Source of the DNA: Hemileia vastatrix
Taxonomy: Eukaryota > Basidiomycota > Pucciniomycetes > Pucciniales > Zaghouaniaceae
DNA: 64,000 nucleotides
NCBI GenBank assembly: GCA_030280995.1
Contig: JASXTE010000002.1
Location: 16,746,683 to 16,810,682 of the forward strand
Reading direction: 5' to 3'
A program made the position numbers and the translations under genes. Under the pieces are notes generated by a model. The model was not told where the DNA came from. It saw only the letters and a program-made list of their open reading frames with translations, and did no database searches. Shown here in pieces: positions 41,745 through 63,735 of the stretch. Within the stretch, counting starts at the first letter, position 1. Each line of letters starts with the position of its first letter.

Positions 41745-41746
41745 AT

Positions 41747-41764
41747 TGGTGTCCCAACAGTGGC
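41747..41764 (+). other. Candidate primer-binding site, outer element
   Basis: TGGTGTCCCAACAGTGGC starts 2 bp after the LTR and with TGG, the expected complement of a tRNA CCA end. I could not assign the tRNA. Confidence 0.5.
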
Positions 41765-41992
41765 ATAATTGTAACTAGTGTTTTGATTTGATTGTTTGGT
41801 TTTCAGGGTTTTGTCAAGAGGACGAGATCAAGCCAGAGCTTCAGCGGAAGAGTCGTAGGATCTAAAATGAGTGGATCAATAGCAGTTATCAAAGGATAGC
41901 ATAGGGCTTTATTGTGAATATAGTTGGGTATTAATTACCAAGTGTGTGTTTATTATTTTTTGTGATCTCTGTTTTGATTACATATTTCTGAA

Positions 41993-42404
41993 ATGCAGCC
42001 TACTGCGACTACATCTAAGGGGTGTCAGGAAAAGTTTAAAACACCTAATTTGGCGGCGTTCTTGCCACAGACGGTAACTACAATAATTAGATGTAAAGAT
42101 GAAAGTTTGCGTTTTACTGGTATTAATACCAATATGTTTTTACGAAGGTTTGAGCAAGTGGCAGAAGTGCATGGAGCAACCGAGTATGATATGGTGCGCC
42201 AAGTGCTTTTCTTTGTCTCTAATTAGTGAAAAGACGATTTAGAGGATTTAAAGGGGCATGAAGAGCGCAATTGATCAGCGCTAAATAAACAAATGCACAA
42301 GAGATGGCCAAAGGTTACTGAGGAAACTAAGTATACAATAAAGGATCTGGATGTCTTGGTAAAAAGGGTCAAAGCTAAAGGGGGTGTTTTAGACCCTAGG
42401 GAAT
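41993..42404 (+). pseudogene. Outer element gag, 5' part
   Basis: ATG at 41,993 opens a gag frame: MQPTATTSKGCQEKF, then FLPQTVTTIIRCKDESLRFT and FLRRFEQVAEVHGATEYDMV, a typical capsid N-terminal pattern. TAG at 42,224-42,226 and TGA codons further on interrupt the frame (VSN-stop-), with KDLDVLVKRVKAKGGVLDPR just before the break. The chromovirus insertion after GGAAT (42,400-42,404) splits the gene; the rest resumes at 50,835 in the same frame (GVLDPRE joined to FKSFREDFDQ). Confidence 0.85.
42400..42404 (+). repeat. Target-site duplication of the chromovirus, left
   Basis: GGAAT is repeated at 50,835-50,839. Removing the insert and one copy restores the outer gag frame across the junction. 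Confidence 0.93.
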
Positions 42405-43211
42405 TATCACACACCATGTGACACTCGAGGAAAAATCAGCTCATTAAATCAATAATAAAGAGGTCTAAATCCATACTCAAAGCACAGAAAGCAATTCTAC
42501 ATAGCAACTGCGACTTTTCTTTTGTGTACTCACTATTCAACTGCGCTAATCTAAACTTTAAATCTAAATTAGTCAATCTCTCAATAGTGTGTTTAGTCTT
42601 TTCCTCGATAAGTGACACACAGCACAACAGTCAATGCAATATTCCGCTAAAAGGTTTATTAAGTATCTGTGGGTTATTAACAGGGGTAGTGAGCATAGAC
42701 GGAATGGATAATGGAGGGTCAAAGGGTTAAACAGATGTTAGTGAGGAGGGTTCAGGTGTAACAGGTATTTTTTGTAGGTCTGTGGTGTGCGGAATGATGG
42801 ATGGGCATGAGTTCAATGCGAGGAGGAGTAATGGATATAAAAGGGGTTGGTTTTTGGTTCGAAATTTTTTAGAATTAAATTATAAAACATATTTATAGCT
42901 AATAATGGTAAAACTGCAAGTTAGATCATTGTTATTGTACATTTCCTTTTTCCCTCAATAATCATTTCTAAATTTAAATCTTTGATTATTTAGTGTTACA
43001 ACCCTTTGTGAGATCCTAAGAAAATTAGTATTACATTAAAATATATTAAGGTTCTTCTCGAATATAACTTGAAGCAGTAGCTCTTCCTTTGATTAATCTT
43101 CATATCACTTCCTTGAACATTTCCTCTGTGCTTCAAAGAAGTTTTTAAACTTCTCCCTCCATCTCACTTTCAGGAACACCCTCGACCTCGTGCGTAGGTC
43201 GTCAAGTGACA
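42405..43211 (+). repeat. Chromovirus 5' LTR
   Basis: Starts TATCACACACCATG where the 3' LTR has TGTCACGCGCCATG: three G-to-A changes, two at CpG. Ends GTCAAGTGACA. TATAAAA (42,836-42,842) lies 35 bp before AGAATTAAATTATAA (42,871-42,885), the predicted start of the transcript (R). Confidence 0.9.
42836..42842 (+). promoter_or_regulatory. Chromovirus sense TATA box
   Basis: GGATATAAAAGGGG, conserved in all three LTR copies (483, 42,836 and 50,468). The spacing to the predicted 5' end of the RNA is 35 bp in this LTR and about 36 bp in the 3' LTR. Confidence 0.7.
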
Positions 43212-43226
43212 TTATAATTTAATTCT
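43212..43226 (+). other. Self-priming primer-binding site
   Basis: TTATAATTTAATTCT directly follows the LTR and is the exact 15-base complement of AGAATTAAATTATAA at 42,871-42,885, the predicted 5' end of the element RNA. Tf1 and related elements prime reverse transcription by folding back the first bases of their own transcript; this pairing, adjacency and TATA spacing fit that mechanism. Confidence 0.75.
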
Positions 43227-43286
43227 CCGTAGTTCTCATTCTTTGCACTACTATGTCCTTTTTTCAGGTGTTTTAAATTCTTTAAA

Positions 43287-44453
43287 ATGGCACCTGTTCA
43301 ACGCACTCCTCCTACGGGAACTACTACTAGGGCTCGCGCCAGAGGCAGGCCAACAGCCACACGGCCTGTTTCCCGCACTCACTCCCTGGAGCCTCTCGAC
43401 CTTAGGGAACGGGGACACTCAGTCCAATCTTTAGAAGACATCCCCCAGGATTTTGATGATTCTATCAATGAAGAATAAGGAGAGGATACAATGCATGAGG
43501 CACCATCTGCCCCTGATACTCACCCTTCTGGTCAACTATCAGAACCTGGACTATCTAATCCTCTGGAAGACTCCATGAGACTTTTCATGAAAACACTTTC
43601 AAATCCAAAGTCTTCTGAGGGATGGAAATTCAAAAATCCTTCCATGAAATCTCCTGATAAATTCAATGGAGAACATCCAGACAGATTGTGTCCCTTCTTC
43701 CAAACCTGCAAGCTCCTGTTCCATAACAACTGATCAAAGCTTGTTTACGCTTCTTCATTCCTATCCAGAAAAGCAGCCAGATGGTTCGAACCTTATCTCC
43801 TCATTCTCTCTTCGACAGACACCCACTTACTTATCAATAACTGGGAAAATTTCAAAGACCAACTTTTTGCGTTGTTTGGTGACCCTAATGAAATGGACAA
43901 CGCGGAAATTGAACTTGATTAACTCCGCATGAGTGATAATGGTAAAGCCTCTGAATATATCTCTAACTTCAGAGCACTGCAAACTCATGTAGGTTGGAAT
44001 GATGCTGCTCTCAAGTATCATTTCAAAAAGGGACTTCCTTCGAGGATCCTGGATCAATTAAATCTTCATGGTTGGAATATGACTACCTTAACGGATATAA
44101 TGGATCAAACCCTCCAACTCAACAGTGCTTACCAAGGACGACTAAAACATCATAAATACGTCAACAAATCTCAAGGCCTAAATTTTAAATTGGGACCTTC
44201 TTCACTCCCACAGCCAACTCAATCCTCCTCGACTCAATCCAAACCCAATAAGGGAAAGGACAAACCTCAACCAAAAGGCTCGACCCCAGGTGATATCAGT
44301 AAGATATTGGACCCAAAAGGGGAACTTAAAGAAGCTGAGAGGAAGATACGAGCAGATAATGGGCTATGTATGTATTGTGGGGGTAAGCACAAGCTAGAAG
44401 ATTGTGTAAAGTTGAAGGAAAGAGAAGGTACTAGTTCAAGGTCAAAAAACTAG
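43287..44453 (+). pseudogene. Chromovirus gag
   Basis: ATG at 43,287 starts MAPVQRTPPTGTTTRARARG. The capsid part reads KSPDKFNGEHPDRLCPFFQT, AARWFEPYLL, INNWENFKDQLFALFGDPNE and AAALKYHFKKGLP-like blocks, a normal gypsy gag order. The 174-residue final part (43,929-44,453) is open and ends with a CCHC knuckle, CMYCGGKHKLEDC. Three stops (43,476, 43,731 and 43,920) and a frameshift near 43,740-43,860 break the front half. It would form the retrotransposon particle and bind RNA. Confidence 0.85.
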
Positions 44454-44467
44454 TAGATAGTTTACTT

Positions 44468-47400
44468 GTGTGCAAAGCAAACTATCTTATCTCTCCCAGT
44501 GCACAGAACCTCCATGTCTTAAGGACTGGAGTTGCCTTATACTGCTTGAGATTCATTCTTTTTGAGGAGGATACCCCCTTCAGTTGTCTTATAGACTCTG
44601 GAGCTTCAGTTTCTTTTGTCAGTTTATCTTTTGCCAAGAAGTTAAAGCTGAAATTCACAGATATCAATCAAACTCCAATTTATTTGGTTGAATCAGAGGA
44701 ACCCATATATTGTGTAAATATGAAAGTTTTAAGGGTTTTCAACTTTCCCCCCTTTGAGTGGGAATTGTCAGTCTTGGACGCCCCAAGAATGGAGGATACC
44801 ATCCTTGGCCATGACTTTTTAATGCATTGGAATCCTGAAATTGATTGGTCACGGAGATTGATCACCCCATGCGCTAAGTATATTTCTGATTCTTCAATGC
44901 AGGTTAATAGGGAGTTAAACAACCCGCCTGACAATGTCCTGCTAGAGGACAATTCTCTGCCAGATGACTTGCAATCATCTGATCTTTATCTAAATGAGCA
45001 ATTGGCTAACCCTTCTAGCTCAATCACTTCACTCAAAGAGGATTTAAATTGCCTCAAAGTAGTCAAATTATGCTCTATCAATTCTGGTCTTCCCTCGACA
45101 GATTCTCTCAAAGAAGATAAGGAGGACCAAATCAATGTTGAAGCCATTAAATTGACTCTAGCGGAAATCTATCACAATTTCCTTGATGTTTTATCAATCC
45201 ACAATGCCAATAAGTTACCACCTCACCAACCCTACTACCATCAAATAGAGTTAATAGGTCCAGTACCTCTGGCAGGTCCTGTCTATTCTTTGTAAAAGGA
45301 TGAATCTCAAGTTCTTTGAGACTACATGGCAGAGAATTTAGCCAAAGGTTTCATCAGAGCCAGTAAATCTCCAACTGGCTCCCCTGTTCTTTTTGTAAAG
45401 AAAAAGGATGGTAGCCTTAGGTTGTGTGTTGACTATAGAAAGCTCAACACAGTCACTAAGAAAAATTCATATCCTGTTCCCCCTATGTCATTTCTTCTTA
45501 CCCTTTTCAATGGGGCTAATTTCTTTTCTAAAATTGATCTTAGAGGCGCTTATAATCTTATTCACATTGTGTAAGGTCATGAACTACTGACTGCAATGTG
45601 CACTAGATTTGGTAGTTTTGAATATTTAGTCATGCCTTTTGGATTATGTAACACACCATCTACTTTTCAAACTTTTTTAATGACATCTTTCAAGATGTTG
45701 TTGTCTACTTAGACAATATTTTAATTTTCTCGAAGACACTAGATGAGCATATTCATCATGTTTGACAGGTTCTAAATCGCCTTTGAGATCAAGGTATCTA
45801 CGCCAAGCACAATAAATGTGAATTCCATCTTAAATCTATTGATTTTTTTGGGGTTTACGTTGTCCACTGATGGTTTAGTCATGGACAACAAAAAGGTCCA
45901 AAAAGTCCTGGAATGGCCTGAGCCCAGAACCATTAAATACCTCCAAGGATTTTTGGGTTTTTCCAATTTCTATAGAAGATTTATTAAAGATTACTCTAAA
46001 ACTATTTCCAATCTTACTTCCCTTCTTAGAAAAGATATTCCTTTTGTTTTTACTTCTACAGCATGAAAGGAATTCAAAGAATTGAAGACTGCATTCGCCA
46101 CAGCTCCAATTCTTTGTCACTTTGATCCTTCTGCTTTGACAATAGTTGAGACAGACGCTAGCAATTATGCTGTTGCAGGGGTCATCTCTCAATTAAATCC
46201 TGAAACAAAATTGTTTCATCCTGTTGCTTTTGAGTCACACAAACTCTTTGCGGCAGAATTAAATTATGAAATTCATGACAACAAGCTTTTAGCTATCATT
46301 CATTGTCTTAAAAATTGGCGCTCTTTTCATCTCAGCCTGGATAATCCTTTTCAGATCCTGACTGACCATAATTCTTTGAAATACTTTATGTCTTCCAAAG
46401 TGTTAACCAGGCTTCAGGCCAGGTGGGCTGAATTTTTTTTTCTATTTCATGTTGCCCAGGTAAGAACTGTGTTGTCCCAGATATCCTGTCATGTTGGGAC
46501 AATGTTTACCCACAGTGTGGGACGCATTTGCTGACAAGAACCCAGCAAATGTGAAATAAATCTTCAACAAATAAATGTTAGCAACTAATCAACTTAATTT
46601 GATGACAATTCAATCTTTTCAGAATCCACTATCCAACATCCTCAAAGCACAGTCAAAAGACAATTATTGTTTAGGGTTAAAAGACAAAATACTCTTGAAG
46701 AAAGGGGCCAAAAGATTTAGTATTGAATCAGGTCTATTAGTTTTTAAAGGTAGAGTAGTCATACCCGACAATAATGAAATAAAATTATGGATTTTCAATA
46801 GTCGACATGATTCTCCATTAGCTAGTCATTTTGGGGTTGATAAAACCTACCAGTTAATAGCAAGGGATTTCTTCTGGCCAGGAATGACCAGAGAAATCAA
46901 GGCCTATATAAGATCTTGTTACGAATGTAATAGGAATAAGGCTCCCCGTCACCAGAAGCATGGGTTTCTTTAACCACTTCCTATTCCCTCTAAACCTTGG
47001 GAATCTTTATCAATGGATTTTATTTCTCAACTTCCTCTTTCTAATAATTTTGATGCTATATTAGTAATAGTAGATAGATTTTTAAAAATGTCTATTTTTA
47101 TAAAAACCACTACTACTGCTACAGCAGAAGATTTGTCAAAATTGTTTCTAGAATATGTATTTTCCAAACATGACTTACCTAATGATATTATTTAAGATAG
47201 AGGCTCATTGTTTGTATTCACATTCTGGACTCAATTTTGTTGACAACTCAATATTACAAGGAATCTCTCCATGGCCTATCATCCTGATACTGATGGGCAA
47301 ACAGAAAGGGCCAACCAAATTCTCCAACAATACCTTTGAATGTATGTCAGTTATCAACAAGACAATTAGACTACATGGTTACCATTGGCCAAATTTTCTT

Positions 47401-48062
47401 ATAATAACTTGACTCATTCTTTGACATTACAATCTCCTTTCGAAACTTTTTTTGGAAGACATCCTCAATTCAACTCCATCCATGTATGAACTAGTCATCC
47501 TGCGGAACATTATCTTTGAAACATATCACGACTCCAAGAAGAACTTAAATCAAACTTGGAATTAACGATTCAAAGGTGCAAGGAACAGGCCAACGAACAT
47601 TGACAATCTGCTCCTTTCTTTAAACCAGGCGACATAGTATGGCTTGACGCACAAAACATTTGAATGACTTGACCATCTAAGAAACTGGTGGAAAGGCTCT
47701 TGGGACCATTCAAAATTTACTCTGAAGTCTCTAAAACTGCATTTTGACTCAAGCTACCTCCTAAATGGCAGGCTATTCACCCTGTTTTTCATGTATCTCT
47801 CCTAGAACTGGCTTGAGAAACATACCTGGGCAGGAACCAAACTCCTCCAGAACCAGTCAAAGTAGAAGACCATCTAGAGTGGGAAGTAAGCCATATCCTT
47901 GATTCAAGAATGCGCAAGGGGAAACTTCAATACATTGTGGAATGGGAAGGCTTCCTTGATGACTCAGACAAAACATCCTGGGAACCAGCCATCAATGTTT
48001 CTAACACCCCTGAACTCCTAAAATATTTTCATCTTAAATATCCTTTAAAACCAAAACCTTAA
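44468..48062 (+). pseudogene. Chromovirus pol: protease, RT, RNase H, integrase, chromodomain
   Basis: Aspartic protease with CLIDSGASVSFVS (about 44,572-44,615). RT with [27 protein letters not shown] and [11 protein letters not shown] (45,360-45,560); the catalytic YLDD reads YLDN at 45,706-45,717. RNase H has VETDASNYAVAGVISQ (46,145) and ILTDHNSLKYF (46,355). Integrase has an HHCC zinc site (HDSPLASHFG...CYECNRNK), a first Asp in SMDFISQLP, a second Asp in DRGS, and Glu in [13 protein letters not shown]. The C-terminal chromodomain (about 47,865-48,055) includes WEVSHILDSR, YIVEWEGFLDDS and SWEPA. More than ten stops and frameshifts inactivate it. Confidence 0.9.
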
Positions 48063-48273
48063 AACTCTCTTTTCTTTTTTATTTTTTCTTTTCTTCTCTT
48101 CTCTTTTCTTTTCTTTTCTTTCTTAAAAATTCTAAAACTTCTTCTCTTCTAAAAAATCCTTACTCTGTTTTCTTTTTCTTCTTTCTCCTTTTCAAAAAAA
48201 AAAAGCTTTTCAACCTTCTTTAAAAATAAAATAAAATAAATAAATAAATTAAATTAAAAATAAATATTAAAAA

Positions 48274-48305
<32 letters not shown>

Positions 48306-48985
48306 TAAAGTCTTAAAATTCATCAAAACAAAAAATCTTAAAAATCAATAATTCCTTTAAATTTCTTTCTTTTCTCCTTTCAAACTTTTTTCTTTTTTCA
48401 AAATACATTTTTCCCTTATTTCTTTTTCTTTGAACTATCAAAATTTTTTACAAACTTAATACAACAAACTTTCTCAAAACTTCACTTCAACCTTTAAATC
48501 TCTCTTTTAAAATTCTTCGAACACGTTACCCTTTTCTTTCAAATTCTTTTTTCAAAACTATTTTTTCCCTTTCTTTTTGAATAATCAAAATTCCTCAAAA
48601 AAAACTTCAAAAAATAAATAAACTTTCACAAATAACAAATTTTTTTTCTCATTAAATTTTCATGTAAACATAAAAAACAAAATTTTTACAATCAACTATT
48701 TTTTCTCTTCTTACTTAAATTTTTCTTTCTTTACAAAATTTAAACTAAAATTTCCTCATTTAATATTTTTTCTTTTCTTCTTTCAAAATTTAAAACAAAA
48801 CTTTATTCAAATATTCTCCTTCTTTCTTTTTTCTTTTTCTTTTTCTTTTCAAAATCTTATAAAATATATAATAAAATTTTATTTAATACAACAAAATAAA
48901 ATAAATAAATAAATACACAAATTACATTTGCTTTCTACTTTTTCTTATTTCTTCCCTCTTTTCTTTCTTTTTTTCTCTACGCATT
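48063..48985. repeat. Low-complexity CT/A-rich spacer
   Basis: Runs of TTTTCTTTTC and polyA, plus (AAT)n at about 48,277-48,302, fill the space between pol and the antisense gene. No gene is seen. On the minus strand this is purine-rich 3' sequence of the antisense gene. Confidence 0.7.
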
Positions 48986-49926
48986 TCAAATTTTCTCCTG
49001 CATTTTCTCCTGAAACAATTTCTTCATTTTCTCCAACACCACCCTTATTTCCTTCCTGAATTTTTCAAATACTTCCTTTTCTCCTACCGGTACCACCTCT
49101 CAAATCTCCAGTAATTCTTCTGCCACTTTGAAGGAGGTGGCATTGACAATCTTTTCAATCTTATCACTTAAGCTTTCAATGTAATGAACTCGTCAACCCT
49201 GCCGAGTTTTCTTTGACCACACCTGGTCAAGGGTTTCCTCATTCTCCTCCCTTGAATCAACCGCCGGTTGACTAGTCTCAACTGGTAGCAATGACGCAGC
49301 TTCCACAATTGGAGCTTCTGCGATGACATCTGAATTCTAAAAACATACAGTCATCAGTAACAAAATTTGAAACAAGAAAAGGTAAAACTTACCTCAAAAA
49401 CAGGGTCAGGCTCTAAAAACAGCCTCAGAGTGACCTCTATTATCACTCCCTTCTTGTCTTCATCATCATCCTCAATGATCATCTGTCGTTTTTTCAGAGT
49501 CTGGTTCAAGATAGGAACCTCATCCTCATCCTCTTCTTCCACCCCTCGCTTTTTACCTGTGGCCTGGGCTACATAAGCGGCCACGGTATCCTCAACCTCT
49601 TCCTCAACTTCTTCTACTGATTTTTTGTCCCTGACCAATACGTCCCAAATATCCTCGACCACCTCTTTGGTCTTCAGGATCACCCAGTATTTGGTCCTTG
49701 TGAAACTTCTCTCAATATCCTCATTTTTTGAGAGAGAATCACACATCACCTGTCTCCAGCGACAAAACTAGCATTTCTGGTGAGGACCTCGTGTGGCCGT
49801 GCTTTTGATGCAGGAGTATTCCATCAATTTGCAGGCCGTGCAAGCTTGGGAATAATGATGAGTGACAATACCGCCATCCGCTTTGGGGTGTGGAGGCGTG
49901 GGAGTTGGAGTAGGACAATTAGACAT
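48986..49926 (-). pseudogene. Antisense gene C: Zn2Cys6-like protein in the chromovirus
   Basis: Spliced minus-strand gene: exon 1 49,926-49,393, intron 49,337-49,392 (56 bp, GTAAGT...TTTTTAG, TACTGAT branch-like), exon 2 49,336-48,986, joined in frame for 294 codons. After MSNCPTPTPTPPHP it has CTACKLMEYSC, 12 residues, then C-x2-CRWRQVMC: spacing CX2CX6C-12-CX2CX6C, as in fungal Zn(II)2Cys6 clusters. Next comes an acidic, EEVEEEVED-rich region, a basic KKR patch, and a coiled-coil-like end (KFRKEIRVVLEKMKKLFQEK). A TAG (49,770) lies inside the second Cys half, and two TGA codons interrupt exon 2; all are one transition from Gln or Arg. Role unknown; a DNA-binding regulator of the element is inference. 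Confidence 0.7.
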
Positions 49927-50016
49927 AATAAAAGAAAAAATAAATAATAGTAGGAGGAGCGAGAGAAAAGAATTAAATAGTGTGGGAAGAATGTGTCTCA
50001 TGCTCAATGGAGCTCA

Positions 50017-50027
50017 TGTTTTATACC
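50017..50027 (-). promoter_or_regulatory. Antisense TATA box, chromovirus
   Basis: Minus strand GGGTATAAAACATG lies about 10 bp inside the 3' LTR boundary and about 95 bp upstream of the antisense ATG (49,926). It is kept in the other chromovirus copy (34-41). Confidence 0.6.
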
Positions 50028-50035
50028 CAGGCATC

Positions 50036-50834
50036 TGTCACGCGCCATGTGACACTCGAGGCAAAAGCAGCTCATTAAATCAATAATAAAGAGGTCTAAA
50101 TCCATACTCGAAGCACAGAAAGAAATTCTACATAGCAACTGCAACTTTTACTTTGTGTACTCACTATTCAACTGCGCTAATCTAAACTTTAAATCTAGAT
50201 TAGTCAATCTCTAAATAGTGTGTTTAGTCTTTTCCTCAATAAGCAACGCACAGCACAACAGTCAATGCAATATTCCACTAAAAGGTTTATTAAGTATCTG
50301 TGGGTTATTAACAGGGGTAGTGAGCATGGACGGAAGGGATAATGGAGGTTCAAAGGGTTAAACGGATGTTAGTTAGGAGGGCTCAGGTGTAACGGGTATT
50401 TTTTTGGAGGTCTGTGGTGTGCGGAATGATGGATGGGCATGAGGTCATTGCGAGGAGGAGTAATGGATATAAAAGGGGTTGGTTTTTGGTTCGACATTTC
50501 TTTAGAATTAAATTATAAAACGTATATATAGTTAATAGTGGTAAAGCTTCAGGTTAAATCATTATTATTGTCCATTTCCTTATTCTCTCAGTAATCATTT
50601 CTAAAACCTAAACCTTTGATTATTGTGTTTACAACCCTTTGTGAGATCCTAAGAATATTAATATTACCTTTAAATTATATTTAGATTCTTATCAAACATA
50701 TCTTGAAATAGCAGCTCTTCCTTCGAATCACTTCCTCAAACATTTCCTCTGTTCTTCAAAGAAGTTTCTAAACTTCTCCCTCCATCTCACTTTTAGGAAA
50801 ACCCTCGATCTTGTGCGTAGGTCGTCCGGGGACA
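50036..50834 (+). repeat. Chromovirus 3' LTR
   Basis: TGTCACGCGCC start and GTCCGGGGACA end, 799 bp. TATAAAA at 50,468-50,474 and AGAATTAAATTATAA at 50,504-50,518 match the 5' LTR. Confidence 0.92.
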
Positions 50835-51465
50835 GGAATTTAAAAGTTTTAGAGAGGATTTTGATCAAAAGGTGGAATATTTAGTTAGTAATGAAGATTT
50901 TAGTGATGCTAATGCATCTTTACCTTGGTTTTGTGAAGCTCTAGCACCAGAAGTGGAATAATGGGTAAAGAGGCGCTTGGATAATGAAGGAAAGCTAGTC
51001 AAGAAGAGGGATGGTAATTATAAGTACCCTGGATTAGAAAAAGTAGAAATGGCAGTGGAAGCAGAAATGAAGCTGCACCAAGTTGAGCGTTGCCCAGCTA
51101 GAGTTGCTTTGGATAACGAGGAGATGGACAAAGATGCATCTGGCGTGCAATTTCCTCCTCATATTTTGTCTCCTAAAGTTAATGTTTTCACTAAGGAGCC
51201 AGATTCAGTTATGGCGAGGATTGATGATCTGGAGAAGAAAATAAATGAAGCGGCAAAAGTGAAAGAATTGTTTAGGCCCAAGAGTTCTCTTCAACCATCA
51301 CGCTTTTCTACTATGGTATGTTACTATTGTAATAAAGAGGGACATACTAGGATGAGGTGTAATGCGCTTCAAAAAGATAAAGAGGAGAGGGTATTTTACA
51401 AGGATGGAACTATGCTAATGTTGGAATATGGGACTAAGCTTGTCAAAGACAAGGATTGAGGGATG
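50835..51465 (+). pseudogene. Outer element gag, 3' part
   Basis: Continues the frame broken at 42,404: FKSFREDFDQKVEYLVSNED, then ALAPEVE, TAA, WVKRRLDNEGKLVKK. From 50,977 to 51,459 the frame is open and ends with a CCHC zinc knuckle, CYYCNKEGHTRMRC (about 51,319-51,360), followed by KDGTMLMLEYG. It would be the nucleic-acid-binding end of gag. Confidence 0.85.
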
Positions 51466-52725
51466 TGAGCCATGGTCATCAATCATATTAATAAAAAGTC
51501 TATGGAGGGCAGTTCAAGCAAGGGAAAGGAGCCTGAAGCAAAAGAGAAAGGTAAGGATGCGAAGTCAGTCAATTTTTCAGTTACTTGCGCAGTATTGGAT
51601 TTTTAAGTAAAAGAAGGAGCGGTTGCAGCCCCACTTACTGCAGCGCATTTAGAGATGTTTTCAGCGAAGCACAAGAGAATGGCCCCACCTACAATTAGTA
51701 GGCCGAGAAGAGCTGGCACTAGGTATGCGAATCCAGAGGATATGGAGGAAGTAGGGTATACTACTAGAGAGAATACACCTGCTCCTATAGAGGATGTTGA
51801 AATGGATGGTGTGGATCATCAGGTAGAAGATCAAACAATGATGATGGATGAGTCAGAGGTAGTGCAGCAAAGAGTGGTACCTGCTGAAGGAATGCCAGAG
51901 ACAAGGCGCAATACTCCAATGAATCCACCTGGAAGAGCAAAGGCTGGTGCGAAGACGACTCAACCTAAATGGAGGATTCAGCGCCCGGTTCAATCTGATT
52001 TTCCTAAGGCAGCTGAGGATTTAGTTGCGCAATGTTTGAAGACTACAGTTTCTGTTCCATTAGGGGTGCTGACAGCAGTAGCGCTGGATGTAGCAAATGG
52101 AATCGTGGATATGTGCTGGAAACAAAGGGTTGCTGATTGCGCTGAGTTTCATGTTGGAGAGCAGTCATCTCAGCTAGTCATTGGATTACCTAGGGTTCCA
52201 CATTATGCAGGACCCTTAGGGTATTTAATGATTACTGTAAATGGTAAGCAAATTAGAGTGTTAGTGGATACAGGTTCACAAATCAATGTGGTGTCAGTAG
52301 ATGATGTGGTGGAGTTAGGTCTTCCTGTAAAAGATGGTGAGGGTACTGTCACAGGAATTGGTGGAGGTAGGTTACCTGTTATAGGTGTAGCCGAGTATGT
52401 ACGCACTAGAGTTGCAGGAGCGACAAGGGATATACATTAATATGTTCCAATGGGTGTAGCTAAACCAGTTTTAGGCGCACCATTTTTAATGGATTACTCT
52501 GCAACTATCTATTATTGTTTAAATAAGACTATTGGAATAAGGATTATGGGTGATGATGGTATTCCAGTAACAGCAGTCTTTGTAGCGCCTAAGGATGGTG
52601 GCTGGGAAACTAAGTACTCTGAAGCTGCACAATTAGAGAAAGAAAGAGAGTTTTATGAGGAAGTCTAAGATGATGAGATAGGGAGACCACCAGGAAGGCG
52701 CCAACATTTTCGTTAGGGACTGGAA
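51466..52725 (+). pseudogene. Outer element protease region
   Basis: An open 261-residue frame (51,655-52,440) starts MFSAKHKRMAPPTISRPRRA, a basic/acidic linker seen in this retroelement clade. The retropepsin block reads GPLGYLMITVNGKQIRVLVD followed by TGSQINVVS: the DTG catalytic motif is intact (about 52,265). A TAA at 52,438 interrupts before GVAKPVLGAPFLMD. The family D protease blocks align here but have lost the Asp. Confidence 0.85.
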
Positions 52726-52952
52726 TTTTAGGTGTTACTATCTCCCAGGATGAGAGGAACCCAGATAGTGACCAGTCAGTCCAACAAGAAGGGATACATA
52801 AAGCGGTACTTCATAGGTGTCTTGGGAATACTACAGTAGAATGTATTATACCTAAGATTTTTAATTTCTTTGATTATGGATTTTGTTATACTTATATTAA
52901 AAAGAAAAGACAAAAATAGGATTTAGGTGTAACCCATAGTTATATTAGAAAG

Positions 52953-54700
52953 GGTTTGATTTTAAGTAATGAAGGAAGCAGAAAGCTCTGTTTAGTGTCC
53001 AAGTATAAACCAGTGGCTGTCAAGGTTAAACCTGTAAATGTACCGATGCCGGATTTGAATCCTCTTTTGCAGAGGCCGGCGCTGTCTAGGAATCCTTATG
53101 ATTCTCCTTTAACAAAGGTTCTACCTGAATTTGCGCCTACTAGTAAAATCACAATGGAGAGGCTTCAGATGGTTAATTTTGGGCCAGAGGATTGGTTGTT
53201 GTAGGAAGAAAGGAAGTTGTTGTTACATGTTATAGTTCTCAAAGAAAAGGCTATTGCGTTTTCTGAAGAGGAAAGAGGTTCGTTGAAACACTCTTATGGT
53301 AAACCTTATATTGTTCCAGTTATACCTCATGCGCCATGGCAAAAGAAGGCTTTTCCAATACCAGCGGCTATAAGAGAAGAGTATATGGAATTAATTAGGG
53401 GAAGGTTAAGGTCTGGGTTGTATGAACAGTCTATGTCTAGTTATTCAAGTCCAGTGTTTTGTGTTGTTAAACATAATGGTAAATTAAGGGTTTTTCATGA
53501 TCTTAGGGAGATGAACAAGGTTACAGTAAAGGATGCAGGAATGCCGCAAAAGCTGGAGGAGTTTGTGGATTCTTTTGCGGGACGTGCATGTTACAGATTA
53601 GGTGATATTATGGGAGGATATGATGAGCGCAAATTGGACAAATCATCCAGACCCATGACAACATTTGAAACCCCACTGGGGCACTTCAGGTTGACAAGGT
53701 TACTGCAGGGTGCAACAAATTTTGTGGCAGTATACCAAGCACAGATGATGTGGATATTTCAGGATGAAATTCCAGATCATGTGGGAATTTTCATTGATTA
53801 TGGTGGTATAAAAGGACCAGCAAGCAATTACAATGGGGAAGTGTAAGAGGAGAATCCGTATATTAGAAGGTTTGTTTGGGAATATGCAATTACCCTGGAA
53901 AGAGTGCTATTCAGGATAGAAGAGGCAGGATTAACGATCTCTGGATCCAAATTTGCTTGTTGTGTTCTAGCGCTAGATATAGTGGGACATGTGGTATGTA
54001 AGGAAGAGAGGATCATTGTGGAAAAACAGAAGAATAAGGTGCTTACATGGCCAAGGCCAAGAAATACTACGGAATTTAGAGGATATTTAGACATTTGTAC
54101 ATATGTAAGAAAATTTATTCGAGATTTTGCTTTGTTTTCTTCACCTTTAAGGTGCTTAACAAGAAAAGATGTTGTATGGGATTGGATGGAGGAATGCAAT
54201 GAGTCATTTGAGTTGTTGAAAAGGATTGTAGGAAAAGATATTCTTTTGAAGAGATTGGAGTATGGACCAGGGGCTGGGAAAATTACTCTAGCAGTAGATT
54301 CTAGTGTGTCCGCAGTGGGCGCAGTTTTGATGCAGGAGGATGAGGAAGGTAATGATAGACCTGTCCTTTATGAATCTAAGACTTTTACTAGAGTAGGGTC
54401 TAGGTAATCTCAGTCTAAGCTGGAGTTATGTGGAGTAGCAAAGATTCTTAAGAAGCTGAAATGGATGCTTTGGGGGCAACATTTTTAGTTGCAGGTTGAT
54501 GCGCTATTGTTGGTGCAAATGATTAGTAGCCCAAGCTTACCAGATGCTCCCATGACAAGGTGGGTGGCGCAGATTAATTTATTTTCTTTTGATTTAGTCC
54601 ACAAGCCAGGAAAAACTTTCACTATGCTGGATTCATTATCTAAAAGACCACCATGTGAAGAAGACTTGGAAGCCAAAGAATTTGAAGAAGATTAGAGATG
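52953..54700 (+). pseudogene. Outer element reverse transcriptase and RNase H
   Basis: RT blocks: AFPIPAAIREEYMELIRGRL, SSYSSPVFCVVKHNGKLRVF, HDLREMNKVTVKDAGMP, GDIMGGYDERKLD and RLTRLLQGATNF. The active-site box reads FIDYGG at 53,793-53,807, so the second catalytic Asp is Tyr. The thumb and connection follow (GHVVCKEERIIVE, LDICTYVRKFIRDFALFSSP). RNase H begins ITLAVDSSVSAVGAVLMQED (54,280) and continues past two TAG codons (54,406, 54,487) to APMTRWVAQINLFSFDLVHK. Stops also occur at 53,202 and 53,844. RT is inactive in this copy. Confidence 0.88.
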
Positions 54701-56318
54701 GGTAAACGGCATAGATTATTGTTATGAAAGATTTGGCAAGGTTTTCTGCAATGAAAATAAACTAGCAGGAAATGTCGTCCATGATGAAAATAAACTAGTT
54801 GCGCGGAATTTCCATAAAGACATAAGACTAGATGTTGATGATGTGCAGGATGTTTGCAAAGATAGTCTGCAACTGGATTTAGGGAACGCTGAAGCTAATG
54901 TAGCGACAAGGAGTGCACTAGGCAAGGCAGTGGAAGAGTCAGATGACAAAGATAATTCAAGGGGAAGTCAAGATAGTAGCACTCATCCCGAAGAGGGGGA
55001 GTATTCTGAAGATGACGCATCTACTGATGAGGGAGTAGAGTTGTTAAGGCTATATCTGGAAGGCAGTAGTAGACCAGATTTTTGCAATAAAAAGGTTTGG
55101 CGCAATATTGAAAAGCGCACTAAAGGCTATTTTATTAAAGATGGGAAGTTATGGAAGGATCAAGCTTTGTTTCCTCAGTTAGTTGTTCAAACTAGGAAAA
55201 GGAAGGAGAAAATACTCAGGGAGTTACATGAGAATTTAGGACATAGAGGTTAAGATAAGATGTATCGCAGAGTTAGGGAAAGATTCTGGTGGCCCAATAT
55301 GAAGAATGAAGTAAGATATTGGGTCAAATCTTGTCCTGAATTTCAGCACAGGAGTTACAGAAAGCCAAAAGAGAAAGGTAGAGAAACAGGAAAATATACT
55401 GTTTTTGGTAGGGTCAGTTTAGATGCAGTTCATATAAAAGAAGGACGCTTTAAATACTTGGTAGTAGTAAGGGATGATCTATCAGGATGGGTCGAAGCAG
55501 TGCCATTGGTAAATCTTAAGGCGAGTAATGTAGCTGAATTCTTGAAAAAAGAATGGGTTTATAGGTACGGGGTAATGAAGATGGTGACTGTAGATGGTGG
55601 CGCTGAATTTACTGGAGAATTCCAAGAAGTAGTTAAAGGTATTGGTGCAAGGCTACAAGTTGCAACACCATATTATCCTAAAGCAGAGGGGATGGTAGAA
55701 AGAGGGCATCAAGTTATAAAGGATGCACTAGTTAAACTATGTGGGAATAATGGGGCAAAGTGGAAGAACTACTTGCCATTAGTTTTGTTTGCAGACAGAA
55801 TTTCAGTTAAAAGGACAAGAGGGTTTTCACCATATGAACTTATGTTTGGTCAAAGGGCGGTATTACCTATTGATCTAGAGGCTGGATCTTTTCTAGGATG
55901 TGACTGGGATCAAGTGCGCTCAACTGAAGATTTAATTCTAGTGAGGGTAGCGCAGCTTGAAAGAAAAGACGAGTTTGTGGAGAAGGCATATGATAGAATG
56001 ATGCAGATCTGGGACAAGTCAGTTAAATATTGGGATGAGTGTTTAGCACATAGGTTAAGGAATCCATTGAACCCAGGAGATTTGGTTTTGGTTTATAATA
56101 GAAGTCTAGAAAGCCAATGGGGGAAGATGTTTTCTGACAGATGGAACGGTCCTTATAGGATCAGAAAGCAGATAACTGGGGGGTCTTACATACTGGAGGA
56201 ACTGGATGGTACTGAATGGAAGTGGCGTGTGGCGGCAGATCAGATCAAAAGGTTCTACCCAAGGGGTGTTCCAGTGATACAAGATAACCTCCGGAATGAG
56301 GAAAAACTACCAGAATGA
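54701..56318 (+). pseudogene. Outer element integrase
   Basis: A linker with an acidic stretch (54,843-55,253) leads to the zinc site: ELHENLGHRG, TAA (55,251), then MYRRVRERFWWPNMKNEVRY and KSCPEFQ, where the last Cys of HHCC is Phe. The core is open for 352 residues (55,260-56,318): SLDAVHI, TVDGGAEF and GMVERGH give the D, D and E. A GPYRI/ITGGSYILEELDG C-terminal domain follows, with no chromodomain, unlike the inserted element. The integrase core is the best preserved sense part. Confidence 0.9.
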
Positions 56319-56932
56319 CCTCCAGGAAGAGGTTAAACTAAAAATTTATGTTAAGCTTTGTTTTTCTAAGAGAACTCACAGGAGGCTTTGACACAGTTGT
56401 GACAGATAGAGGGCGCTAACTGGAAGTTAGGTGCACTAAGACTGGACAGGCAACTGACATAAGCACTCAGATGAGGGCGCAGAGGAAAATGAAATCTTAT
56501 ATTTTCATCATTTGAGGGGACATGACAAGATAGGCAATTGTATTAAAGGTGGCGCATACCATGAAAACGCAAAAGACGCTGGGAATTTAGCTAATGGGTT
56601 AACTAACCAGGAGTGGAATAATGATTTATAGATGGGGCGCTCTACAGTTTGATTCTTATTTACATTGTGTATTTTTTTATCGCAGTAAAGGCGGTAAATT
56701 TTTATGATTTAAAAAGTTTATTTATGTTTTTTTAGGGTTTACAGTCTTTTAAAGAAAGTAGGGGGAGCAAAGTTAAGCGCTCTAAATTTAGAAGGCAGGT
56801 AGTATGGAAGACAGGTGTAGTAGAATAGTGCCATGTCTAAAATGATTATTTAAAGGCATAGTGTGAAAAAAATATGAAGACTATGTACAGGAATAATGGA
56901 CAGAGAAGGCTCATATGGAGAGCACTAGTGGA
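56319..56932. other. Spacer between integrase and antisense gene A
   Basis: No coding signal on either strand. It contains several GCGC words and separates two convergent transcription units. Confidence 0.5.
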
Positions 56933-57738
56933 CTATTCAGTATCGGGGTGAAAGCTATTAGAATATCCTTTCCAGTCTTCAGGCATGACAAAATGACGAG
57001 GATTGGTGGGGAATCCAAGAATAGTTGATGACCTGATTTCCTTCATTAGTTGACCTATAATTTCTATATGGTTGTAGCGGGCTTCAAGTTCAGCGTCAGA
57101 AAAAGCTGGTGTGTTATAATAGGATAGAGACATAGCGTCATATATAAGACAAAGTCTTGAAAACATTTGCATGGAATGCACGAAAGGTAAAGGAATAGGA
57201 ACCCATACCAGGGAGATGGATTCATTGAAGCCTGAAAAAGAGTCAGTGGTTAAAGGAAGTGTAAGTATAATGAAGGTTACTTACTTGCTAATAAGTTTTG
57301 TGGGCATGCTTATGGCAAAGAAATGGTAATCGCGTCAGGAGCAGCTGTAGTGGAGCCTGAGTGCATGGAAGCATTAGAGCTCAAAGTGGAAGAAGGCGCA
57401 GTGCTAGGCTGGATAGATATTTTGTGCCTGGGAAAAGTAGGAAGCGATGGAGACTCATAAGGAATGTTGTTATTGGTGGAAGAATTGGGTCTAGCGGGAC
57501 TAGTAGTTGTAATTATGGGGGCGCTACTGGTAGAACTAGGAGGAAAGTGAATATAGCCAGTGGGCTGAGGAGTATTATGGTTCAAAGAGATATTGCAAGT
57601 TTTGTGGTATCTAAAGCAGTTTTCACAGGCAGGTTTAAAGGAGGCATACCCCCGAGGTCTAGAAAATGTACAATGAAAGTTGTGGCGTTTACAAAATGAG
57701 CATGCTTGATCTTTGGGAACTGCGCGATATTGAGTCAT
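56933..57738 (-). pseudogene. Antisense gene A: Zn2Cys6-like protein in the outer element
   Basis: Spliced minus-strand gene: exon 1 57,738-57,285, intron 57,232-57,284 (53 bp, GTAAGT...TTTTTCAG, ACTGAC branch-like), exon 2 57,231-56,933, joined in frame for 250 residues. The N-terminus has CSFCKRHNFHC, 14 residues, then CENCFRYHKTC: CX2CX6C-14-CX2CX6C, complete with six Cys in one exon. A Ser/Thr/Pro-rich middle follows (57,570-57,330). Exon 2 begins SFNESISLVWVPIPLPFV and has a mixed amphipathic part (LSYYNTPAFSDAELEARYNH). One TAA (codon near 57,310, Gln-like CAA expected) precedes the splice site. A strong TATA box lies 40 bp upstream of ATG. Function unknown; DNA binding is inferred from the Cys pattern. 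Confidence 0.72.
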
Positions 57739-57773
57739 GATGTTTGAATGAAGATAATCCGGGTTATTAGATG

Positions 57774-57787
57774 GGCTATTTATAGGT
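57774..57787 (-). promoter_or_regulatory. TATA box of antisense gene A
   Basis: Minus strand ACCTATAAATAGCC, a near-ideal TATA box, 37-49 bp upstream of the ATG at 57,738. It is internal to the retroelement and far from the LTR, so gene A has its own promoter. Confidence 0.65.
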
Positions 57788-58249
57788 TAATAATGGCATT
57801 ATGGAAGAGACATCAGTCACACAATAACTGACATGAGATCTGAATGGTTTCTAAGAAGGATGTGAAGAATCTTCATCAAAGAAGAAAAAAATAAGGGACC
57901 TAAGGAAAGGCAAATCCGTCGCAGTCAAGGGAGAGTCATACACTGCGAAGATCTGAAGATTTCAAGGGAACGCATGCATATATGACACAGGGGATGTATT
58001 TGCTGCTATAGAGAGTAGCGCTGATCTCAGATTTATTTTGTGTTTATTGTTTCACCGCTCATTGGCACTTAGTAGTAAGGTGCGCTGTTTGGAAAAAGGA
58101 TGATATTTTTTTTGGGCAACTCATCTCGCAGATGTTGGGTTCTCACAAGGGACTTGGGGTCAAGCAGAATTAAGAAGAAAGAAAAATTATTATTACATTT
58201 TTTTTTACAAAACTATGTACAATTTTTAAGGAATATATAAAGAAGATTT
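57788..58249. other. Intergenic spacer between antisense genes A and B
   Basis: No coding signal. It should hold the 3' end of gene B and the upstream region of gene A. A T/A-rich tract at 58,180-58,240 could serve 3'-end formation. Confidence 0.45.
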
Positions 58250-59302
58250 TTAGTATTCTGCGTCATTGTAGATAGGGATGCAGAAGGCCCAGTTGTAAAC
58301 AGCCTCTTGCATGTTTTTCTGCAAGGTGGTGATTATCTGTTTTCTTTTGTTATACTCAGAAAAAGTATAAACTGGGACCGCCTCAAGGAATTCTTCAATG
58401 GCAACTATCATATTGTTCATACGACGCATGGTTGCATTGTATGGTGCACAGGCAACATGCTCTGCAAATTCCCAGTTTTGAGCCATGGTGGGCTCTTCCT
58501 CGTTGTTGTTAGGGGGGATGTCGGCTGGCCAGCCATCTGGGATGATTGCATCAAAGACTGGCTGAAGAGAAGTCCAGTCAGGAGTTGGTGAGCGGGGAGT
58601 GCACTCAGGAATAGGATCGGTATCCCAGACAGGATCTTTTTCCAAAGCTGGAAGGAAAAGGGGAGCATTAGGAGGTGGAGGCAATGCAGCGTAAGGCGTG
58701 CCTGGCACATTCTAAGAGAGAAAAGAGATTATGTTAGCGTTAAAAAAGAGAGAAGAAGGCAAAAGAAATATAACTTACTGTACTCTCCTCTGAAAAGAGA
58801 GAATTTGGAATGGAGGCAACACTACTAGGTGTAGGTGCGCGGTGACCAACCTTGGCTCACTTGTTGCCAGGTGGAGTTGAAGAGGTGGGTGCAGGGCACT
58901 TGATGGCCAACTGACTCATCATATTTGAGGTTGAGGCATTGGGATCTAGGAGCGCAAAAGTGGGCAGCCCATTGTAACTACACTTATTTTTGCGTTGTTT
59001 ACAGTAATCGCATGACTAAATAAATAAAATAAAATAAAAATAGAAGATTAGTAATAAGGAGAAAGGAAGGAAAAGAAATGAAGAAAACTTACAGTAAAAA
59101 AAGTGTTGCCACAGCGGGCTTTTGAGAAATGACAGGGAGTTATGCCATTCTTGATGCAGCGGGTGCATCTTGTCCCACCCATCAGCGTAGTAACTGGCGT
59201 TGCAGGTGGAGCAGCAGCAGGCTGGGTACGCACAAACTGCCAGATAGTGTTCAGGACGTTGGCGGTATTTTCGGTATTAATGGTAGTATTTCTAGTATTC
59301 AT
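58250..59302 (-). pseudogene. Antisense gene B: second Zn2Cys6-like protein in the outer element
   Basis: Three exons on the minus strand: 59,302-59,093, 59,015-58,779 and 58,711-58,250, all phase 0, 302 residues. Introns of 77 bp (59,016-59,092) and 67 bp (58,712-58,778) have GTAAGT donors, TAG/TTAG acceptors and CTAAT/CTAAC branch-like sites. The Cys motif spans intron 1: CTRCIKNGITPC, 14 residues, then CDYCKQRKNKC, so the cluster only forms after splicing. The second half carries the basic KQRKNK typical of Zn2Cys6 DNA-binding loops. Exon 3 is Pro-rich, then helical (EFAEHVACAPYNATMRRMNN, TFSEYNKRKQIITTLQKNMQ). One TGA (58,860, CGA expected) is the only nonsense codon. It is a paralogue of gene A by motif and linker length. 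Confidence 0.75.
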
Positions 59303-59384
59303 TGAAGGAAAGAAATTTATGAAGGTAAAAATGAGGATTGTAATAAATAAGAGAAGATGGAGGAAGAAGACGCTGCAAGACGCA

Positions 59385-59398
59385 GGATATTTATAGGC
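59385..59398 (-). promoter_or_regulatory. TATA box of antisense gene B
   Basis: Minus strand GCCTATAAATATCC about 85-95 bp upstream of the ATG at 59,302 and about 30 bp inside the 3' LTR boundary (59,429). The position mirrors the chromovirus antisense TATA. Confidence 0.62.
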
Positions 59399-59428
59399 TC
59401 CTGGGGACAGTAGCAAGTAGAGGGAGGA

Positions 59429-60542
59429 TGTGGTATGCGCCTCGCAGGTAGTTTGATTTTGGACCAATCAGCTCGCATAGTCCAGGAAGAACAAAGGGGA
59501 TTCATAGCGCAGTAGGAAGTGCTAAACTATAATATGTGTTTGTGTGTTTCAAGGACAAAGGGAAATAGAAGTGCGGAAGAGGATTCAGGGTCTGTGCACT
59601 CAGATTTTGCAGCAGGATGCGCTGCACAATGGGGAATTGTGTGTTATTGATTTAGGACTGCAAGCGCTGAACAATATGGACTTGGATTTTCCAATAATCG
59701 TGTGTTACGCACTAAGGAAGGAATTATGGCTTAAGGAAAGACTCAAGTGCAAAGTATACTGCACCGGGGCTAGTTTGGTAACTTACTGAAACAGGTGATA
59801 TAGGAGGTTAACTACTTAAAAGTCAAAGCAACTAGGATCAGCATTAGAAGGAGTCAAACTTGGAAGTAGCGCTGAAACAAACAAAGGTACAGTCAGGGGT
59901 GTGCATGTCAAGATGTCAAGTATGAGTTAAAAAAGTTAATACTAGTGTTAGTAAGGATAGGGTATGTTTTAGGCGCTGTAGTTGTTACAAGCGGTGTATG
60001 TAGTTTACTAATAGATTAGTTACTGTTTTACTAATGTAGCACTAGAGTCAGCGCTGGAGATCCACTAGGGAACTGTGTTTAGAGCGCTGGAAAAATATAA
60101 AAAGGGTATCGCATCTAGTAATAAAAAAGAGATCAAATTGACAAATAGTTAGTTAACATACAAGTAGTTAATAATTGTGGAGTCAAAGATATTAGATTTT
60201 CTGCAATCAATTGTTTGAGAATATATAGATTCAGTAGGATTAACTATTATTAGAGTTATTTTATTGCTATAATAAGGCATATTCAAAGAGAGTGCTTCAA
60301 GAGGGAGTAGCTGTGGATATTAGCGCTTGTTAAGAATAGAAATATCCAGATAGTAATACCTGTTTTTCCAATCTTTTAAACTCAGTTCTCAACTTATAAA
60401 CTTTCTAATCACATATTAGTGTTACACATTATTGCGCTGTTTTTAAAAATAAGAGTGGCAGGCGCTTCTTTTTAGAAATTGAAAAGAAGAACCAACCCAT
60501 CTCGCATTGTGTCTACTGCTTAGTACTTTAGAACTCTCTACA
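59429..60542 (+). repeat. Outer element 3' LTR
   Basis: TGTGGTATGCGCCTCGC start, CTCTCTACA end, 1,114 bp. Sense TATA ATATAAAAAGGG near 60,096-60,107. It contains roughly ten GCGC words, many as AGCGCT. A frame from 59,544 to 59,789 (ELCVIDLGLQALNN, FPIIVCYALRKELWLKERLK) is open and recurs in the 5' LTR. Confidence 0.92.
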
Positions 60543-60546
60543 ATGT
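60542..60546 (+). repeat. Target-site duplication of the outer element, right
   Basis: AATGT, the partner of 40,626-40,630; the LINE resumes with GTAGGTGCCCTCTC. Confidence 0.88.
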
Positions 60547-63611: not shown

Positions 63612-63637
63612 TTCGCCCGCTTCGGCGGTGCATACGA

Positions 63638-63669
<32 letters not shown>

Positions 63670-63735
63670 GGCCCCTGCACAAGGATGACACATGTAGTCA
63701 GAATGGATTCACCTACGGGTGAAGATTTTTTTTTT
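63612..63735 (+). ncRNA. U6: U6 spliceosomal snRNA
   Basis: The catalytic RNA of the spliceosome. The 5' hairpin is CCGC-TTCG-GCGG with a stable UUCG cap. The core AAAATTGGAACGATACAGAG, AAGATTAGCATGGCCCCTGC and ACAAGGATGACA is essentially the universal U6 sequence: ACAGAGA (5' splice-site pairing), AGC triad and internal stem-loop are all present. The 3' end has a hairpin TTCACC-TACG-GGTGAA followed by ten T, a pol III terminator. Transcript about 115-120 nt; the 5' end is estimated from TATA spacing. No intron is seen. This is the most confident functional gene in the window. Confidence 0.95.
63726..63735 (+). terminator. RNA polymerase III T-tract terminator of U6
   Basis: Ten consecutive T directly after the 3' hairpin. 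Confidence 0.88.

What the first reader, a model, noticed from the sequence alone, without database searches (positions are those of the whole stretch)
48986..59302. Antisense, spliced Zn2Cys6-like genes in two different gypsy retrotransposons
Seen: three minus-strand genes between integrase and 3' LTR, one in the chromovirus and two in the outer element. All have two CX2CX6-7C halves separated by 12-14 residues, GTAAGT donors, in-frame exon joins and their own TATA boxes. Known: Zn(II)2Cys6 clusters are fungal DNA-binding domains; some plant Tat-lineage gypsy elements carry antisense extra ORFs. Inference: fungal gypsy elements may carry captured or shared transcription-factor-like regulators, expressed opposite to gag-pol, to control their own promoter, host genes or integration. 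I know of no described family of this kind.
Basis: partly seen in the sequence, partly recalled or inferred. Interest (0 to 1): 0.9.

Follow-up and report, generated by a model that had tools for sequence, protein, structure and literature searches.

The report
Antisense zinc-cluster genes in fungal retrotransposons
Two different jumping genes in a very large, probably rust-type fungal genome carry extra genes on their opposite strand that would make small cysteine-rich, possibly DNA-binding proteins; at least one was clearly kept working while its element was active, which suggests that such elements carry their own regulators.

Summary
Three spliced minus-strand genes lie between pol and 3' LTR: A in a chromovirus, B and C in the outer gypsy element. 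The window copies are broken (A three in-frame stops, B one, C one), but other genomic copies show they are more than chance. Position, splice sites and TATA boxes are kept in most sampled copies. Intact frames: B 6 of 28, C 4 of 28, A 0 of 30. In A, variants shared by at least 4 copies are strongly constrained (ratio about 0.45, p below 1e-7) while private ones are neutral; C is weaker, B not significant alone. All three proteins have two CX2CX6-7C halves, but in A and C the more basic half comes second, and 1 of 6 tested proteins passes Pfam's Zn_clus cut-off: Zn2Cys6-like, not proven members. Antisense accessory genes are known (plant Grande and Retand, fungal Boty brtn); a zinc-cluster type was not found in the papers searched. 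New here: the outer element is studded with GCGC (61 in 11.5 kb against 19 in the other 52.5 kb), beyond protein and codon use, a candidate target of its own regulator. Function is inferred; expression could not be tested.

The parts
40631..41743 (+). 5' LTR of the outer Ty3/gypsy element (end set by eye; TSD AATGT, or ATGT if the LTR ends one base later)
   Evidence: self-BLAST 40631-41746 vs 59429-60544, 95.0%; pairwise 94.9%
59429..60541 (+). 3' LTR of the outer element; the element splits a LINE (ORF pieces 40143-40568 and 60524-62619)
   Evidence: LINE assignment by reading the ORFs
59420..59428 (+). likely polypurine tract GAGGGAGGA of the outer element
   Evidence: read by eye
55254..56318 (+). 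integrase of the outer element (H2C2 + rve)
   Evidence: Pfam; relatives with a named organism mostly rust fungi
56933..57738 (-). gene B: exons 57738-57285 and 57231-56933; six-Cys region in exon 1; one in-frame stop in this copy
   Evidence: 6 of 28 copies with intact frame
57779..57784 (-). TATA box of gene B
   Evidence: at the same place in 27 of 28 copies
58250..59302 (-). gene C: exons 59302-59093, 59015-58779, 58711-58250; six-Cys region split by intron 1; one in-frame stop in this copy
   Evidence: 4 of 28 copies with intact frame; one copy passes Pfam Zn_clus
59390..59395 (-). TATA box of gene C
   Evidence: a TATA box within 130 nt upstream in 26 of 28 copies
42405..43211 (+). 5' LTR of the nested chromovirus (TSD GGAAT)
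50036..50834 (+). 3' LTR of the nested chromovirus
47817..48059 (+). chromodomain of the chromovirus
   Evidence: PF00385, E 2.5e-11
48986..49926 (-). gene A: exons 49926-49393 and 49336-48986; three in-frame stops in this copy
50020..50025 (-). TATA box of gene A, about 11 bp inside the 3' LTR border
   Evidence: a TATA box within 130 nt upstream in 26 of 29 copies
40630..60544 (.). reiterated GCGC motif: 61 sites in the outer element (40630-42404 and 50838-60544); the nested chromovirus between lacks this density

Best explanation
A, B and C are regular accessory genes of two Ty3/gypsy families of a probably rust-like basidiomycete. Each is transcribed from its own TATA promoter (A and C just inside the 3' LTR, B further in), on the strand opposite to gag-pol, and spliced. 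The products are small proteins with a six-cysteine, two-half zinc-cluster-like region; A and C also have basic, NLS-like patches and acidic stretches. Most likely they act in the nucleus as DNA-binding regulators of their own element (feedback on the LTR or on chromatin state), working like what is proposed or known for antisense proteins of other retroelements (Grande gene23, Retand TRP28 proteins, HTLV HBZ). In the outer element the repeated GCGC motif, densest in the LTRs, is the candidate target. Shown: coding constraint (A strongly, C less, B weakly), fixed position in the sampled loci, kept splice sites and TATA boxes, motif enrichment. Inferred: expression, zinc binding, nuclear location, DNA binding, the link between protein and motif, and the regulatory effect.
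For: Position: A between chromodomain and LTR in 27 of 30 loci; C with B and LTR in 25 of 30; B with integrase in 8 of 8 (each set includes the window copy). First-look candidates 1036 (B), 1155 (C), 4454 (A), 40 scored each. Splice: A GT 29/30, AG 29/30; B 29/29, 29/29; C intron 1 29/33, 30/33, intron 2 32/33, 30/33. TATA: 26/29, 27/28, 26/28 against 4, 20 and 9% in shuffles. Mean pairwise dN/dS: A 0.315 (30 copies), C 0.403 (33), B 0.564 (29), outer integrase as yardstick 0.556 (11 full) or 0.661 (18 with partial ones). Singletons neutral (A 0.89, B 1.13, C 0.87); variants in at least 4 copies A 0.43 (p 3e-9), C 0.63 (p 0.003), B 0.68 (p 0.11), integrase 0.58 (p 0.21). With CpG context A 0.46 (p 9e-8), its other two same-strand frames 1.40 and 1.30. 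A exon indels: 17 of 34 multiples of 3, elsewhere 12 of 52, p 0.019. Motif.
Against: Zn_clus reaches its cut-off in 1 of 6 tested proteins with the cysteine region; neither A protein gives a Zn_clus hit. The classical full pattern (recalled) is met by 0 of 3, and the halves look swapped in A and C. AlphaFold mean pLDDT 32.4 and 37.5. No PDB relative for A or C by sequence. Variants in 2-3 copies are not clearly constrained in A (0.91) or B (0.82). With CpG context C is 0.78 (p 0.09), little lower than two of its opposite-strand frames (0.83, 0.85), and B 0.72 (p 0.18) equals its opposite-strand wobble frame (0.71); an opposite-strand ORF of 112 aa overlaps B exon 1. Exon indels of B (5 of 20) and C (7 of 21) show no clear excess of multiples of 3. 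7 of 30 A copies and 6 of 29 B copies share a TGA at a cluster cysteine. CGG, the usual Zn2Cys6 half-site (recalled), is not enriched in the outer element (49 against 68 expected, internal part). No homologue of A or C at E 0.01. No expression data.
Confidence: 0.5

Rival explanations
1. The genes and proteins are real, but the cysteine region is not a DNA-binding domain: it binds RNA or protein, or acts as a nucleic-acid chaperone in particles or in integration, as zinc knuckles do.
For: Weak Zn_clus scores and swapped halves; the fold is unknown.
Against: Separate antisense promoters fit a regulator better than a particle part; one C copy has a basic CDYCKQRKKKC half that matches the first half of Zn_clus.
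Confidence: 0.22
2. Captured host transcription-factor genes that act on host genes rather than on the element.
For: Zn2Cys6 factors are common in fungi (established knowledge).
Against: No database homologue found for A or C; the host-genome search with PF00172 did not complete, so host paralogues are open. Capture of a spliced mRNA would not bring introns (inference).
Confidence: 0.1
3. The antisense transcript is the functional product (dsRNA, promoter interference) and the protein is incidental.
For: Antisense transcripts of LTR elements may feed silencing (discussed in PMC7264820); TATA boxes are kept.
Against: Constraint follows the reading frame in A (0.46 against 1.40 and 1.30 in the other same-strand frames); A exon indels tend to multiples of 3.
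Confidence: 0.07
4. Chance ORFs and splice-like sites in decaying elements.
For: Window copies carry stops; A has no intact copy in the sample; B alone is not significant.
Against: Intact B and C frames, kept splice and TATA sites, purifying signal in A and in part C, fixed position in the sampled loci, six-Cys pattern in none of 40 random sequences.
Confidence: 0.03

Closest known systems
brtn antisense gene of Boty-like elements (Botrytis cinerea)
   Same: Fungal LTR element with CHROMO domain (PMC4227169) and an additional gene antisense to gag-pol between pol and 3' LTR (PMC7264820) (passages).
   Different: What brtn encodes was not seen here (Zhao 2011 seen only as a cited title), so homology to A could not be tested; no zinc cluster is mentioned in the passages seen.
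Plant antisense aORFs: Grande gene23, RIRE2, Retand TRP28
   Same: Antisense, between pol and 3' LTR; Grande gene23 has its own promoter and a nuclear product; DNA-binding or regulatory role proposed.
   Different: TRP28 (PF04195) or no known domain; no cysteine cluster in what was read; plant elements.
HTLV-1 HBZ
   Same: Spliced antisense gene near the 3' LTR encoding a transcription regulator (recalled; an HTLV antisense promoter in the 3' LTR is mentioned in PMC7264820).
   Different: bZIP protein of an animal retrovirus (recalled); no homology claimed or tested.
Fungal Zn(II)2Cys6 factors (PF00172)
   Same: Six cysteines in two CX2CX6-7C halves; the basic half of one C copy matches the first half of the Pfam model.
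   Different: Order of halves looks swapped in A and C, linker 14 in B and C, no CGG enrichment, 5 of 6 tested proteins below the cut-off or without a hit.
VANC anti-silencing proteins of VANDAL transposons
   Same: Element-encoded protein and a short motif dense in its own family (passages of PMC5735166).
   Different: VANDALs are DNA transposons of a plant; motif 9 bp, mainly in non-coding parts and tandem repeats; here GCGC also lies in coding parts, and binding is not shown.

Membership tests
Zn2Cys6 (PF00172) | Six Cys in two CX2CX6-8C halves | tested here: met
   all three genes
Zn2Cys6 (PF00172) | Pfam score above the curated cut-off (21 bits) | tested here: not met
   1 of 6 tested proteins with the cysteine region passes: C of L026 22.3 bits; C of L027 11.9, B of L021 13.0, B of L013 13.4; A of L065 and L054 no Zn_clus hit
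Zn2Cys6 (PF00172) | Full classical pattern with basic residues in the first half and linker 5-12 (pattern recalled) | tested here: not met
   0 of 3 proteins; the second half of C matches the first-half pattern
Zn2Cys6 (PF00172) | Binuclear zinc fold | tested here: inconclusive
   AlphaFold of A and B exon 1, mean pLDDT 32.4 and 37.5; C not modelled
Zn2Cys6 (PF00172) | Zinc and CGG-type DNA binding | not testable with these tools
   indirect: CGG not enriched in the outer element
Antisense accessory genes of LTR elements (aORF-3R) | Antisense, between pol and 3' LTR | tested here: met
   27 of 30 (A), 25 of 30 (C with B and LTR), 8 of 8 (B with integrase)
Antisense accessory genes of LTR elements (aORF-3R) | Present in most copies of the family | not tested
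   loci were found by similarity to these genes, so copies without them were not sampled
Antisense accessory genes of LTR elements (aORF-3R) | Own promoter | tested here: inconclusive
   TATA boxes kept; transcription not tested
VANC-like self-recognition system | Short motif at high density in the own family | tested here: met
   GCGC: outer copies 4.2 per kb, chromovirus copies 1.2 per kb; window counts. Genome-wide density not tested
VANC-like self-recognition system | Element protein binds the motif and removes silencing | not testable with these tools
   no binding or methylation data
Tat-lineage plant gypsy | Relationship of RT and integrase | not tested
   no tree was built; the inner element has a chromodomain and outer integrase relatives with a named organism are mostly rust fungi

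The most novel reading that the evidence does not exclude
A self-recognition system in a fungal retrotransposon: the outer element encodes one or two zinc-cluster-like proteins (B, C) from its antisense strand and has written their target, GCGC, into its whole length, LTRs and coding parts included, so that the protein marks family members for activation or for protection from silencing. The chromovirus would use its own protein (A) and another signal.
Probability: 0.15. Interest if true: 0.88.

Novelty: new variant of a known kind. Interest (0 to 1): 0.64.

Why it matters
Antisense genes of LTR elements are known, but the review read here (PMC7264820) states that their function is not known. 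Two fungal elements that carry zinc-cluster-like genes of the same design, one of them with an element-wide short motif, give a testable case: protein, promoter and candidate DNA target in one element. If confirmed it would show retrotransposons carrying sequence-specific regulators of themselves, and could help explain how some families multiplied in giant fungal genomes.

Tried and rejected
Protein database: A (copy L054) and C (copy L026) found nothing at E 0.01. The outer integrase as a positive control found 137 relatives, 120 listed, so the database is not blind to this lineage; but the length rule of that tool disfavours single exons of C, and B was not searched. PDB by sequence: nothing at E 1 for A or C; B not searched. 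AlphaFold of A and B exon 1: useless, so no fold search was made. Profile comparison of A, B and C: P 0.003-0.07 over 16-25 columns, no claim of common descent. Other species' elements: one genome-contig scan gave one locus of 35% identity in a Bacteroidetes MAG, one viral-contig scan none.

Rows dropped: the alignments kept 27 of 29 outer copies and 29 of 29 chromovirus copies by length, plus the window copy. The B value (0.67; 25 of 28 rows with over 80% cover) was set aside because misaligned copies inflated it; one search replaces it (36 candidate loci, 28 kept for B and 32 for C by length 0.9-1.1, plus the window copy). integrase: 17 loci plus window, 11 rows full length; 22 of 29 LTRs kept in each family.

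Mutational protection as the cause of the GCGC excess: thought insufficient. CpG retention is 0.53 in GCGC against 0.48 elsewhere (transition share 0.34 against 0.41, p 0.017), a small difference, and chromovirus and LINE CpGs do not show the excess.

Searches of the host genome with PF00665 or PF00172 for other element families or host paralogues did not complete.

That no zinc-cluster antisense family was found in print rests on the search listings.
Full report
What is there. The window lies in a genome of 747.6 Mb. A LINE is split by an outer Ty3/gypsy element (LTRs about 40631-41743 and 59429-60541, 95% alike), which is itself split by a chromovirus (LTRs 42405-43211 and 50036-50834, TSD GGAAT). 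Pfam finds protease, RNase H, integrase zinc domain and chromodomain for the inner element, and protease, RNase H and integrase for the outer, with RT there below its cut-off. Among relatives of the outer integrase that name an organism most are rust fungi (Austropuccinia psidii, Puccinia, Phakopsora, Cronartium); many are unnamed, and the closest, 72%, sits in a record labelled Xanthomonas, which may be contamination. The host is therefore probably a rust-like basidiomycete; the species is not known to me.

The three genes. A, B and C are on the minus strand between pol and 3' LTR with the exons given in parts; four GTAAGT introns, all joins in frame. The window copies have three, one and one in-frame stops.

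Are they genes? Other copies decide. The searches reported 1036, 1155 and 4454 first-look candidates for B, C and A and scored 40 each. In the loci fetched, A sits between chromodomain and LTR in 27 of 30, C with B and LTR in 25 of 30, B with integrase in 8 of 8. These loci were chosen by similarity to the genes, so element copies without them would not be seen. Intact reading frames: B 6 of 28, C 4 of 28, A 0 of 30. Splice signals are kept in nearly all aligned copies, but at this divergence that alone is modest evidence. TATA boxes are kept in 26 of 29, 27 of 28 and 26 of 28, against 4, 20 and 9% in shuffles.

Selection. Mean pairwise dN/dS is 0.315 for A, 0.403 for C, 0.564 for B, and 0.556 (11 full copies) or 0.661 (18) for the outer integrase. 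The sharper test sorts variants by how many copies share them. Singletons, mostly from after insertion, are neutral in A, B, C and integrase (0.89, 1.13, 0.87, 1.06). Variants in 2-3 copies give 0.91, 0.82, 0.67 and 0.72. Variants in at least four copies give A 0.43 (p 3e-9), C 0.63 (p 0.003), B 0.68 (p 0.11), integrase 0.58 (p 0.21). With CpG context in the null, A stays at 0.46 (p 9e-8) while its other two same-strand frames give 1.40 and 1.30; C weakens to 0.78 (p 0.09) and B to 0.72 (p 0.18). The opposite-strand frame that shares the wobble position is also low (A 0.55, B 0.71, C 0.83), as overlap predicts; for B it is no higher than its own frame, and a 112-aa opposite ORF overlaps B exon 1, so for B this test does not decide the strand. 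A exon indels are multiples of three in 17 of 34, elsewhere in 12 of 52 (p 0.019); B (5 of 20) and C (7 of 21) show no clear excess. A is firmly a coding gene, C probably, B by context and intact copies.

What the proteins look like. Each has six cysteines in two halves. In A (for example CEFCRWRRVTC) and C (CDYCKQRKKKC) the more basic half comes second, whereas in the classical cluster it comes first; Pfam aligns the second half of one C copy to Zn_clus positions 1-18, the first half of B to 19-35 and of another C copy to 20-35. A carries a KKRR patch before an acidic run, C an NKRAKV patch and acidic stretches. Zn_clus passes its cut-off in 1 of 6 tested proteins. Structure prediction failed. 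I call them Zn2Cys6-like with a possibly swapped order of halves, not members.

A candidate target. The outer element holds 61 GCGC in 11.48 kb (about 10 expected from dinucleotides), the other 52.5 kb of the window 19 (about 6 expected). They lie in LTRs, gag, pol, the antisense-gene region and spacers. Of outer LTR CpGs 56% are in GCGC, of internal ones 27%; in chromovirus, LINE and the rest 4-9%. Copies agree: 4.2 per kb in 29 outer loci, 1.2 in 29 chromovirus loci. Outer 3' LTRs have 7.6 on average against 1.0 expected (22 of 29 copies usable); chromovirus LTRs have 2.2 against 0.24 (22 of 29), so a smaller excess exists there too. In the outer sense ORFs there are 18 GCGC against a mean of 7.8 (maximum 16 in 500) when synonymous codons are shuffled with the element's own usage, while GCG and CGC alone are near expectation. 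So the tetramer is favoured at the nucleic-acid level. That B or C binds it is inference.

Known relatives. Vicient and Casacuberta (PMC7264820; [quoted passage not shown] they call the function unknown and suggest an accessory-protein-like role. Retand antisense proteins carry a TRP28 domain predicted to bind DNA (PMC11963269, passages). Boty brtn is mentioned in PMC8365987 and PMC4227169 (passages). VANC proteins bind a short family-specific motif and undo silencing (PMC5735166, passages). The held main text of a survey of rust transposons (PMC12210899) does not contain the words antisense, zinc or open reading frame. So the finding is a new variant of a known kind.

Limits. No expression data; no other species' elements could be read; the host-genome search for Zn_clus relatives did not complete; no A copy in the sample is intact; the protein-motif link is untested.

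Noticed in passing
42405-50834 within 40631-60541: The nested chromovirus has more diverged LTRs (91.1%) than the outer element that contains it (94.9%), against simple nesting order; gene conversion or unequal decay may explain it.
   Followed up: partly
copies of A, B, C and integrase: Private mutations of old copies are richest in C:G>A:T transversions (429 of 1537 singletons, against 363 C:G>T:A), unexpected if CpG- or RIP-type decay dominated.
   Followed up: partly
A codon 32, B codon 48: A TGA in place of TGC at a cluster cysteine is shared by 7 of 30 A copies and 6 of 29 B copies, perhaps subfamilies that moved without the protein.
   Followed up: partly
1-40629: CpG is very rare (2.3 per kb) compared with the two gypsy elements (11-20 per kb).
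   Followed up: no
3800-11000: A block of long direct repeats, roughly 73-84% alike.
   Followed up: no
63615-63720: U6 snRNA gene or copy, 82.9 bits.
   Followed up: no
42385-42400 and 50017-50031: The outer gag just before the chromovirus insertion resembles the stretch just before the chromovirus 3' LTR (seen by eye); chance or target preference.
   Followed up: no
P0001, P0042: Integrases like the outer element's appear in records named Xanthomonas sp. A2111 and Streptomyces fumigatiscleroticus, probably contamination.
   Followed up: no
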